Shown: one piece after another, positions 48 through 21,141 of the stretch
How positions within the stretch are numbered: the stretch's first letter is position 1
How the letters are laid out: each line of letters begins with the position of its first letter
Assembly (NCBI RefSeq): GCF_004349055.1
Contig: NZ_SMKX01000019.1
Location: 1-64,000 of the forward strand
Source of the DNA: Kribbella antibiotica
Lineage (GTDB): Bacteria > Actinomycetota > Actinomycetes > Propionibacteriales > Kribbellaceae
Length of the DNA stretch: 64,000 nucleotides
Direction of reading: 5' to 3'
Notes under the pieces: generated by a model
The model's input: the letters and a program-made list of their open reading frames with translations, nothing else
What the model was told of the DNA's origin: nothing
Database searches by the model: none
Program-made: the position numbers and the translations under genes

Positions 48-58
48 TTCCACATTTG

Positions 59-133
59 GTGGGCTGACCCACGCCCGTGTGGGTTAGCCCACCGCATGCG
101 GTAGGCCCACCCGCATCCCCGTGGGCTGACCCA
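59..133. repeat. Cluster of GTGGGCTGACCCA repeats
   Basis: The 13-mer GTGGGCTGACCCA occurs directly at 59-71 and 121-133. A near-perfect inverted copy lies at 79-92 (one mismatch), and ATGCGG (96-101) can pair with CCGCAT (around 111-116). Several mutually exclusive hairpins are therefore possible in a gene-free stretch downstream of sucD. The function is not evident; a terminator array or a small repeat element are both possible. Confidence 0.6.
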
Positions 134-163
134 TCAAATGGGGTGCGTCGGCGAACAACCCAC

Positions 164-18682: not shown

Positions 18683-19438
18683 ATGCAGAAAGTCACGTCA
18701 CCAGACGGCACCGAAATCGCGTACGACGTGATCGGCACCGGACCCGGCTTGGTCCTGGTGGCCGGTGCGTTCACCGCCAGGTCGTACTTCACCCCGTACG
18801 TCGAGGCGCTGTCGACCGCCTTCGCCGTGGTCAACTACGACCGCCGCGGCCGCGGTGATTCCGGCGACACCTCGCCGTACGCGGTCGAGCGCGAGTGGGA
18901 AGACCTGGCCGCCGTACAGGCCGCAACGGGCGCGCGCTTCGCCTGTGCTTTTTCATCAGGGGTGATGGTGCTGCTGCAGTCCGGGGTGCCGTTCGAGCAG
19001 CTGGCCGTGGTGGAGCCGCCGTTCCGCACCGAGGGCGCACCGCCAGTGCCGGACCGGTACGTCGAGCGTCTGCAGGAACTCGATGCCGCAGGAGCCGCCG
19101 AGCTCTTCATGGTCGAGGCAGTAGGCCAGCCCAAGGAGGCGGTCGACCAAATGCGCTCCACCCCCATGTGGCCCGAGCTGATCGCCATGGCTCCAACCCT
19201 CCTGTACGACGCGCTCCAGTTGCGGGACAGCGCCGTACCGACCGCTCTGCTCAAGTCGATCAACACGCCAACACTCGCCCTCTTCAGCAACGCCAGCCCG
19301 GCGTGGCTACAAGAGTCAGTCCGCCAAACCGCCGCAGCCCTCCCGGATGCAACCGCCGAAGGCCACGAAGGAACCTTCCATACCGTCTCCCCGGAAACGC
19401 TCACTCAGGTACTGACGGGTCGGTTCTTGGGGGTGTGA
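18683..19438 (+). CDS. Alpha/beta-hydrolase family protein
   Basis: This 251-residue protein has the alpha/beta-hydrolase core: DGTEIAYDVIGTGPGLVLVAG (strand and oxyanion region), NYDRRGRGDSG, a nucleophile elbow CAFSSGV where the first Gly of GxSxG is Ala, and a C-terminal His in HEGTFHTV. ATG at 18683 is chosen over GTG 18665 because the upstream purine run GGAGAAAGG serves as ribosome-binding site. A half-site GGTAGACAG resembling the GntR palindrome overlaps its leader. Substrate unknown. Confidence 0.75.
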   Translation: MQKVTSPDGTEIAYDVIGTGPGLVLVAGAFTARSYFTPYVEALSTAFAVVNYDRRGRGDSGDTSPYAVEREWEDLAAVQAATGARFACAFSSGVMVLLQSGVPFEQLAVVEPPFRTEGAPPVPDRYVERLQELDAAGAAELFMVEAVGQPKEAVDQMRSTPMWPELIAMAPTLLYDALQLRDSAVPTALLKSINTPTLALFSNASPAWLQESVRQTAAALPDATAEGHEGTFHTVSPETLTQVLTGRFLGV

Positions 19439-19450
19439 GCTGCTTTGGCA

Positions 19451-19609
19451 ATGGTTGCTCGCCGCTCCGGACAAGCCGGGCACGTTGTCTGTGGCTGGTC
19501 GCCGCGGCGGCCGCGTTACATAAAGAGCTTGGCTGGGGCCGGCGCGGGGTTGAGGTACTGGCGAGGTTGGCGATCGCGTGACCGCTGCTTGAGGTACCCG
19601 CTATGGCTG
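19451..19609 (+). repeat. Left arm of 159-bp inverted repeat
   Basis: It matches the reverse complement of 20100-20258 over the full 159 bp with about 16 mismatches by eye and no gaps. The first 95 bp differ at only two positions. Confidence 0.85.
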
Positions 19610-20099
19610 AGGTCGAAAAGCAGCGCCAGTGTGGAAACTTCATGTCGCCATTTGCACAAAACGTTCCACCCAGCTCTCCAGGCGGGCTAGTAGGTGGGGC
19701 CGGGGAGCTTTACCCGTCATTCCAGGTCAGTTTCGCTCCCCAGCCCGCCCGGATACCTCACGAATCGGGCACTGGGGAGTCCTACTGGCGTATCCGCCTG
19801 CCGTTTCGCGCTACGCGTGACTTTTTCGGGTCCATACGCCGAAAACTCACGCATAGTGAGCGCCGGCGAGTCCAGCCGGGCCAACAACCGGGAGCTTGAA
19901 CAAGAAAAGGTGGGCCAGGACAGGTAACTACTTGCTCACGCCCACCACCAAGCCCACAGACCCCCGACAACTGGACAGCGCCGCGACGAAAAAGGGGCAA
20001 CCAGCGAGGCAGCCGGGCACGGCAGCACCCCCGGCCTCCTTGCCAGCGCTTTTCACCACCAACAAAGGGTCACGTTCCAGGCGTCCCCACTACCGGCCG

Positions 20100-20258
20100 C
20101 AACCATAGCGAGCACCTCAATCGGCGCGAGCGCGATCGCCGACCTCGCCAGTACCTCAACCAGCCACCGGCCCCAGCCAAGCTCTTTATGTAACGCGGCC
20201 GCCGCGGCGACCAGCCAAAGACAACGTGCCCGGCTTGTCCGGTGCGGCGAGCAACCAT
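20100..20258 (-). repeat. Right arm of 159-bp inverted repeat
   Basis: It is an inverted copy of 19451-19609. Its distal end (GCGGCGAGCAACCAT) is also the beginning of the 46-bp tandem unit. Confidence 0.85.
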
Positions 20259-20395
20259 GCACCGCCGTACCAGCCAGCCGCAGTCGTTGCGGCGAGCAAC
20301 CATGCACCGCCGTACCAGCCCAGCCGCAGTCGTTGCGGCGAGCAACCACGCCGCCATACCAGCCCGGCCGCAGGTAGTCCGGCGCGCAACTAGCC
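20243..20395 (+). repeat. Tandem 45/46-bp repeats
   Basis: Units at 20243-20287, 20288-20333 and 20334-20379 each begin TGCGGCGAGCAACCA and end around GCCGCAGTCGT; a partial fourth unit follows to 20395. The first two are near identical and the third is diverged. Confidence 0.85.
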
Positions 20396-20415
20396 AGACG
20401 GGAGTCTGGGGTTTG

Positions 20416-21141
20416 CTAAGCGCCGGCTGGGCGGATGAGGTGGGGGTGAGCGGTAGCGAGTTCGGCGTACGCCGCGAGGACGAGGGCGGGAATGTCGACG
20501 TGGTCGATGAAGTTGCGGCCGCGCGGACCGTAGCCGTGCTCGTCGTCATGTAGCCGACGGATCTCGCCCAGAACCAGCGAGCGGAACCGTGGCAATCCCC
20601 AGATCTCCGGATGGTCAGGGCCGGCGCTCACGAATTCTGGGCCTATCCAGGGGAGCACCGGCGCGTGGCTGATGAGCTGCGTGCCGGGGAGATCGGCGAA
20701 CGAGCGCGCGAAGCTCGCGTGCGTTCGCCGTTGCATCGTCGGGTCCTGGATCAGCACGAGAGCTGCCGGCTCGTCGATCAGCCTCCGGGTGAACGCCGCG
20801 TTGTCACCACAGTTCGTCGACTGGTCCTCCACCTGCAGAGCCGCGGCCGGTACGTCGAACTGCGTGGTGAGGACGTCGCGGAAGACGTGCGATTCCGGGC
20901 GACCCACCGCTACCGTTAGGCCGCGGCGTCTGACCGCGGTGTCGAGGTGATGGGTCGAGTGGCCGATGCCGCCGCTGATCAGGATTCGTGCGGCGGTGGC
21001 GTGGTGCAGCTGAGCCGCGACCTCGACCGACTCGAGCACGGCCGAGCCCATCAACACGATGATGTCCACCCGCTCGGGCAACACGTCGCGTCGAGCGAGG
21101 TAGCGGCCGATGGTGGTCTCAGCCGGAGTCGACTCGGTCAT
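20416..21141 (-). CDS. DUF218/YdcF-family protein
   Basis: This 241-residue protein matches the YdcF/ElyC-type DUF218 fold: DIIVLMGSAV near the N-terminus, ILISGGIGH, and the signature VEDQSTNCGDNAAFT, equivalent to E-x-x-S-x-N-T-x-x-N. There is no signal peptide or membrane segment, so it is a cytosolic version. AGGA lies 6-7 nt before the ATG. It sits 14 bp downstream of the beta-clamp gene on the same strand and is probably co-transcribed with it. Biochemical role is unknown. Confidence 0.8.
   Translation of the reverse strand: MTESTPAETTIGRYLARRDVLPERVDIIVLMGSAVLESVEVAAQLHHATAARILISGGIGHSTHHLDTAVRRRGLTVAVGRPESHVFRDVLTTQFDVPAAALQVEDQSTNCGDNAAFTRRLIDEPAALVLIQDPTMQRRTHASFARSFADLPGTQLISHAPVLPWIGPEFVSAGPDHPEIWGLPRFRSLVLGEIRRLHDDEHGYGPRGRNFIDHVDIPALVLAAYAELATAHPHLIRPAGA

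What the first reader, a model, noticed from the sequence alone, without database searches (positions are those of the whole stretch)
19439..20415. Gene-free element with 159-bp inverted arms and structured core
Two 159-bp arms, about 90% identical, enclose 490 bp with strong hairpins (19681-19749 and 19815-19852). No protein is encoded. This could be a non-autonomous mobile element (MITE-like), a large structured non-coding RNA or a chromosomal structure site. The high conservation of the first 95 bp of the arms, including TTACATAAAGAGCTTGG, argues for selection or recent copying.
Basis: partly seen in the sequence, partly recalled or inferred. Interest (0 to 1): 0.62.

Follow-up and report, generated by a model that had tools for sequence, protein, structure and literature searches.

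The report
Hairpin mosaic repeat between bacterial genes
A soil actinobacterium (Kribbella) carries about forty copies of a gene-free element built from hairpins, placed just after the ends of genes, where they probably stop transcription and where other mobile DNA likes to land.

Summary
In detail: 165-bp inverted arms (19451-19615 / 20094-20258, 89%) enclose 478 bp of hairpins between two convergent genes. The element matches 39 other places in this draft genome (24 complete copies with the window's) and 9 diverged ones. The arms show no sign of coding and are freely shuffled between copies, so the long arm-arm stem is not maintained in cis. The core is a mosaic of hairpins (order C-D-B-A). 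Hairpin A is a family of its own: found in 31 of 38 Kribbella genomes and 0 of 158 others of the order, with strong covariation (21 of 32 pairs changed on both sides; 0/500 shuffles). Its copies sit about 50 bp from gene 3' ends, often between convergent genes, rarely at divergent ones; at one orthologous gap two species have hairpin A and two have unrelated hairpins. An IS110-family element has entered hairpin A's loop in six contigs, and its left end carries two 7-nt segments fitting both target halves (predicted bridge-RNA guides). Best reading: a REP/BIME-like mosaic of 3'-end hairpins, probably bidirectional terminators, with no Y1 (RAYT) transposase found in this genome. The MITE reading is only partly supported: no clear target duplication, no parent transposon found. 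Function is inferred, not shown.

The parts
19440..20275 (.). composite element shared with other copies
   Evidence: own-genome matches mostly cover query 13-836 of 19439-20415; alignment of 24 complete copies
19451..19615 (+). left inverted arm
19630..19669 (+). hairpin C (module present once or twice in other copies)
   Evidence: weak fold alone, z -1.2; module map of 24 copies
19672..19755 (+). hairpin D
   Evidence: -37.4 kcal/mol, z -1.6; seen in 15 of 24 copies mapped
19808..19860 (+). hairpin B; its loop holds a 190-bp MITE in three other copies, and in contig C333 a transposase gene follows a truncated copy of it
   Evidence: z -4.6
19870..19986 (-). hairpin A, the genus-wide covarying module
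   Evidence: 95 bits in the window, but this copy is one of the 38 that built the model
19922..19923 (.). position that matches the 2-bp core (AG, CT on the other strand) where the IS110-family element has entered other copies; uninterrupted here
   Evidence: junctions; position read off
20094..20258 (-). right inverted arm
20240..20390 (.). about three 45-bp units repeating the outer end of the arm
   Evidence: families D1, D2
18683..19438 (+). left neighbour gene, alpha/beta hydrolase (PF12697)
20416..21141 (-). right neighbour gene, convergent, DUF218 (PF02698)

Best explanation
The element is one copy of a REP/BIME-like mosaic intergenic repeat of Kribbella: hairpin modules held between two long inverted arms and lodged just after the stop codons of genes, often convergent ones. 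Shown here: multicopy, no sign of coding, modular, at gene 3' ends; hairpin A is genus-wide with covarying stems; an IS110-family element, a MITE and a further transposon sit at hairpin loops of copies. Inferred: the hairpins act as bidirectional transcription terminators or 3'-end stabilisers, which would explain their place, the change of sequence with kept pairing, and unrelated hairpins at an orthologous site; copies spread by an unknown route and are then reshuffled by recombination between copies.
For: 39 further places in this genome and 9 diverged ones. Module map of 24 copies: same order, modules missing or doubled. Hairpin A: 21 of 32 pairs with double changes, 0/500 shuffles, sliding the partner drops pairing from 80% to 39-47%; 31 of 38 Kribbella genomes, 0 of 158 others (12 of the 31 had given sequences to the model). 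Place: of 30 composite copies 14 convergent, 11 tandem, 2 divergent, 3 unclassified, and the window's own is convergent; of 60 hairpin A loci 27 convergent, 25 tandem, 2 divergent, 6 unclassified (one place counted twice); centre a median 53 bp from the nearest gene 3' end in 51 of the 54. In this window other convergent gaps hold hairpins (4 of 6 with z below -2), divergent gaps do not (0 of 11), tandem gaps seldom (3 of 13). At one orthologous convergent gap two genomes have hairpin A and two have unrelated strong hairpins. An IS110-family element sits in hairpin A's loop in six contigs, as known for REPs (PMC1525189, passages).
Against: No transcript data. On the gene strand of 28 rows of tandem copies G-T pairs (44) hardly exceed A-C (38), and 47 against 38 in convergent ones, so selection on an RNA strand is not visible; DNA-level palindrome correction could give the same covariation. 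Two weakly folding copies (L109, L125) had been dropped before pairs were counted. The arms have no evident role and do not covary. Hairpin A is missing from 7 of 38 Kribbella genomes. Gene calls come from my own codon-usage script; two of the 27 composite calls overlap the element (L012, L015); some loci are orthologous between species.
Confidence: 0.62

Rival explanations
1. A true MITE: a deletion derivative of a DNA transposon, moved in trans by a transposase that binds the arm ends.
For: Long inverted arms, shared outer ends GGTACGGCG/CGCCGTACC in many copies, many copies, close matches only in this genome; in G018, G014 and G029 the two flanking genes lie 64-196 bp apart by alignment blocks, without the element.
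Against: No convincing target duplication (mean longest shared word 6.2 against 5.9 with shuffled flanks, 14 of 200 shuffles as high; L012 with 9 and L015 with 10 letters stand out); arm pairs seen lie about 1 kb apart or less, so no autonomous parent was seen, though the assembly breaks at copies.
Confidence: 0.15
2. Neutral palindromes: the hairpins spread as selfish DNA and stay perfect by DNA-level palindrome correction and gene conversion, with no function; 3'-end placement only shows where insertions are tolerated.
For: Little G-U over A-C asymmetry; all four allele combinations at 583 of 703 site pairs in 41 arms; avoidance of promoters would follow from tolerance alone.
Against: Hairpins of unrelated sequence at the same orthologous gap and hairpins in 4 of 6 other convergent gaps of the window point to a demand for a hairpin there.
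Confidence: 0.17
3. A large trans-acting structured non-coding RNA encoded in many copies.
For: Covarying hairpin A, strong fold of hairpin B.
Against: Module content differs between copies, the arms of one copy pair no better than arms of different copies, at gathering scores the only Rfam match in the window is a tRNA.
Confidence: 0.04

Closest known systems
REP / BIME repeats of gammaproteobacteria with RAYT transposases (PMC2817692, passages seen)
   Same: Many intergenic palindromes with kept complementarity, mosaic composites, preference for gaps between convergent genes (PMC1525189, passages), targets of IS110-family and other ISs
   Different: Hairpin A has nested stems over about 95 columns instead of a short palindrome; a GT(A/G)G at the foot of its inner stem in 17 of 38 rows but only 1 of 15 outside this genome and G015; no Y1 transposase (PF01797) in this draft genome; composites have 165-bp inverted arms; in the order sampled the family is confined to Kribbella
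IS621 and other IS110 elements that insert in REPs through a bridge RNA (PMC11208160, passages seen)
   Same: 2-bp CT core, insertion in a repeated palindrome, left end with a segment equal to the left target and one complementary to the right target
   Different: Only about 115-120 bp of each end of the Kribbella element were found; the guides are predicted from sequence and were picked by eye
Correia elements, RUP and similar MITEs (named in a passage of PMC2817692; otherwise recalled)
   Same: Short non-coding inverted-repeat elements in many copies
   Different: No clear target duplication and no parent transposon found here

Membership tests
REP/BIME | many intergenic copies of an imperfect palindrome | tested here: met
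REP/BIME | complementarity kept through compensatory change | tested here: met
REP/BIME | GTAG/GTGG-type head at the foot of a short palindrome | tested here: inconclusive
   17 of 38 rows read GT(A/G)G across the foot of the inner stem, 1 of 15 outside this genome and G015; the whole stem system spans about 95 columns
REP/BIME | RAYT (Y1, PF01797) gene in the genome | tested here: not met
   no match in this draft genome; 5 of 14 control genomes ring; other Kribbella genomes not tested
REP/BIME | target of specific insertion sequences | tested here: met
   IS110-family element at the hairpin A loop in six contigs
MITE | inverted repeats at the ends, multicopy, no sign of coding | tested here: met
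MITE | target-site duplication | tested here: inconclusive
   flank sharing 6.2 against 5.9 shuffled, 14 of 200 as high, 24 copies
MITE | autonomous parent with the same ends | tested here: inconclusive
   none among matches in the own genome, but the draft breaks at copies
Bidirectional intrinsic terminator | hairpin directly after stop codons, between convergent genes | tested here: met
   about half of classified copies are in tandem gaps
Bidirectional intrinsic terminator | transcripts end at the hairpin | not testable with these tools
   no RNA data
IS110 family (the invader) | IS110-type transposase | tested here: inconclusive
   32 C-terminal residues up to 75% identical to genes annotated as IS110 transposase; the same peptide has no Pfam match and only chance-level PDB matches; the body is missing
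IS110 family (the invader) | bridge-RNA guides that fit the target | tested here: met
   both 7-nt segments in order in 1 of 200,000 resampled left ends; the segments had been picked by eye

The most novel reading that the evidence does not exclude
Hairpin A is a REP-like mobile terminator family that is spread not by a Y1 transposase but by a Kribbella protein with an AbiEi-type domain and a PD-(D/E)XK-like nuclease domain. That gene has a hairpin A copy on both sides in G023 and G004 (one orthologous locus) and in K. albertanoniae (a locus with other neighbours); the pairs of hairpin A copies about 1.1 kb apart that I noticed in the capped lists all flank this gene family.
Probability: 0.1. 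Interest if true: 0.8.

Novelty: new variant of a known kind. Interest (0 to 1): 0.5.

Why it matters
REP-like repeats are best known from proteobacteria, where many come with RAYT transposases. A genus-wide, covarying hairpin family in a high-GC actinobacterium, in a genome where that enzyme was not found, and built into larger arm-bounded mosaics, would show that dispersed 3'-end hairpins arise and spread by more than one route, and that IS110 elements with bridge RNAs use them as targets outside proteobacteria too. It also gives a testable set of candidate bidirectional terminators for actinobacteria.

Tried and rejected
Coding arms: not supported, no codon periodicity over 48 arms, and each of six frames of the left arm has a stop in at least one copy (1 to 23 of 24). 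Long arm-arm stem as a conserved structure: rejected, same-copy identity 0.8257 against 0.8259 between copies, 51.5% of 20,000 permutations as high. Y1/RAYT partner: no match in this genome. Phage or plasmid origin: no match in either collection. Rfam at gathering scores: only a tRNA in the window. Target duplications: inconclusive. RNA-strand test by G-U against A-C: little difference. Hairpin B as a genus-wide module: not seen, only this genome and G015 of 38 at up to 2 mismatches. Candidate partner nuclease: AbiEi_4 above its cut-off in two of three proteins and below it in the third, MTES_1575 far below its cut-off in all three, no NCBIfam match. Both hairpins of such a pair sit at gene 3' ends, so the flanking may be chance; I keep it as a lead. 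Papers: none holds Kribbella with 'repetitive extragenic palindromic', with 'miniature inverted-repeat' and genome, or with 'insertion sequence' and IS110; one paper, unrelated by its listing, holds Kribbella, palindromic, repeat and intergenic. Two wider searches on actinobacterial REPs (6 papers, none on this by its listing) and on bidirectional terminators (1 paper, Zymomonas) gave nothing I used.

Full report
Observation. The inverted arms are real: 19451-19615 and 20094-20258, 165 nt, 89% complementary, 478 nt apart; the next listed inverted repeat of the window within 1.5 kb is 52 nt at 73%. The shared element runs from about 19440 to 20275; the stretch to about 20390 is a run of about three 45-bp units that repeat the arm's outer end. 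It fills the gap between two convergent genes, an alpha/beta hydrolase (stop at 19438) and a DUF218 gene (stop at 20416). Hairpins at 19808-19860 (z -4.6) and 19862-19995 (z -2.2) exceed shuffles; 19672-19755 is strong but hardly beyond its composition (z -1.6); 19628-19672 is weak (z -1.2).

Copies. A search of the window's own draft genome (9.28 Mb, 348 contigs) gave 121 matches, which I grouped into 39 other places and fetched. Twenty-three of these hold both arms in one contig; with the window's copy that makes 24 complete copies. Queries with a diverged copy and with one module pointed to 9 further places (C279, C280 twice, C265, C294, C291, C314, C42, C312 near its start). Of 58 genomes (own, 36 others of the genus, 21 of the order), 4 matched: own, G015 (nine short pieces), G018 and G035. 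No match in plasmid or phage records. G015:C536 has the length (104,883) and hairpin position of a named contig of Kribbella albertanoniae, and G010 those of K. pratensis, so the genus is Kribbella. The species of the window was not identified.

Arms. Among 48 arms of 24 copies, left and right arm of one copy are no more alike (0.8257) than arms of different copies (0.8259; 51.5% of permutations as high). All four allele combinations occur at 583 of 703 pairs of common sites and at 89 of 142 pairs within 20 bp, in 41 arms (seven diverged right arms were left out). So arms are reshuffled between copies and the long stem is not maintained in cis. Variation shows no codon periodicity, though two of six frames of the left arm are open in most copies; three small ORFs have no Pfam match. 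Flanks show no convincing target duplication.

Core. The order is C, D, B, A, with modules missing or doubled. In three of the 24 copies (L019, L023, L044) a MITE sits in hairpin B; in L019 and L023 it is 190 bp and its 5-bp duplications, TCCAT and TCTAT, follow the local sequence. In C333 an ORF with HTH_38 and rve domains (IS30-like; that label is recalled) follows a truncated hairpin B. Hairpin B was found only in this genome and G015 of 38, at up to 2 mismatches.

Hairpin A. A 21-nt pattern of its loop region (up to 3 mismatches) matched 25 of 38 Kribbella genomes; the reversed control matched none. From 53 candidate places in held loci, 44 were kept; the 9 dropped for weak folds are six halves cut by an insertion, one chance match in a gene, and two plausible copies, L109 and L125. 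Of the 44 I aligned 38, leaving out six own-genome copies: L009, L012, L014, L019, L027, which are near-duplicates of others, and L017, whose one side is replaced. The 38 show nested stems; 21 of 32 pairs change on both sides, 80% of cells pair against 39-47% when the partner is slid, and none of 500 shuffles reaches the values. A covariance model found hairpin A in 31 of 38 Kribbella genomes and none of 158 other genomes of the order (1 of 29 genera). Twelve of the 31 had given sequences to the model, 19 had not. At most 18 candidates per genome were scored, so copy numbers are lower bounds; stricter filters were on.

Place and function. I called genes with a codon-usage script trained on the window. 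Composite copies: 30 examined, 27 classified, 14 convergent, 11 tandem, 2 divergent (in L012 and L015 a called gene overlaps the element). With the window's copy, 15 of 28 are convergent against 14 of 54 gene pairs in the window (binomial 0.0017). Hairpin A loci: 60 examined, 4 without a clear centre, 2 unclassified, 27 convergent, 25 tandem, 2 divergent; L116 and L191 are the same place, so 26 of 53 is the fair count, and some loci look orthologous between species. In 51 of the 54 (L110 and the two divergent ones left out) the hairpin centre lies a median 53 bp from the nearest gene 3' end, 40 of 51 within 70 bp. In this window, other convergent gaps hold strong hairpins (4 of 6 with z below -2), divergent gaps do not (0 of 11), tandem gaps seldom (3 of 13). 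At one orthologous convergent gap, among the four genomes in which I saw the two genes side by side (the list is capped), G004 and G026 have hairpin A while G036 and G023 have unrelated strong hairpins. At the window's own site, G018, G014 and G029 have no element between the two genes; several other genomes have longer gaps there that I did not analyse. This fits hairpins kept at gene ends, most simply as bidirectional terminators. That step is inferred. Against it: on the gene strand of 28 rows of tandem copies G-T (44) and A-C (38) are nearly alike, as in convergent copies (47 and 38), so no selection on an RNA strand is seen, and DNA-level palindrome correction remains possible.

IS110. 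Six contigs (C318, C101, C296, C346, C305, C14) begin or end with the same 115 bp at the right half of hairpin A, and two (C149, C333) with the other end. That other end codes for 32 residues, up to 75% identical to plasmid genes; 12 of the 25 rows listed are annotated as IS110 transposase. The peptide itself has no Pfam match and only chance-level PDB matches. Junctions give a CT core. The left end holds ATTACCT and GGGACAG, which are the left target with its core and the complement of core plus right target; I picked these segments by eye, and one of 200,000 resampled ends has both in order. This is how bridge-RNA guides are described (PMC11208160, passages) and parallels IS110 elements in REPs (PMC1525189, passages).

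Lead. Pairs of hairpin A copies about 1.1 kb apart, noticed in capped lists, in G004, G023 and K. albertanoniae flank one gene family with an AbiEi-type domain and a weak REase_MTES_1575 match. In the 231 records (810 kb) then held, homologues occur only at these loci, but that DNA was mostly chosen for its hairpins. G004 and G023 are one orthologous locus; K. albertanoniae has other neighbours. Each hairpin also sits at a gene 3' end, so chance is not excluded.

Verdict. A REP/BIME-like mosaic of 3'-end hairpins, a new variant of a known kind. It works like a REP but is not filed as one, since no Y1 transposase was found in this genome and the head motif is not shared by the family; nor as a MITE, for want of target duplications and a parent.

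Noticed in passing
L020 and L155 (C149, C333) 1-120; L028 (C318) 1-111: Both ends of an IS110-family element inserted in hairpin A's loop, with predicted bridge-RNA guides for that target; its body was not found in the assembly.
   Followed up: partly
L019 654-843, L023 2382-2571, and L044: A 190-bp MITE (ends GAGGCTGTCGC / GCTACAGCC) in the loop of hairpin B, with 5-bp duplications in L019 and L023 that follow the local allele.
   Followed up: partly
L155 230-1480: A transposase ORF with HTH_38 and rve domains (IS30-like) after a truncated hairpin B.
   Followed up: partly
L227 349-1287; L163 169-1173; L062 549-1508: AbiEi-type plus nuclease-like gene with a hairpin A copy on both sides in three genomes (two loci).
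   Followed up: partly
L110 552-1028 (G010, Kribbella pratensis): Three hairpin A copies in tandem about 170-190 bp apart.
   Followed up: no
window 50-143: A second long palindrome at the window's edge (52-nt arms, 73%), with a weak hairpin A score (20 bits, E 0.07).
   Followed up: no
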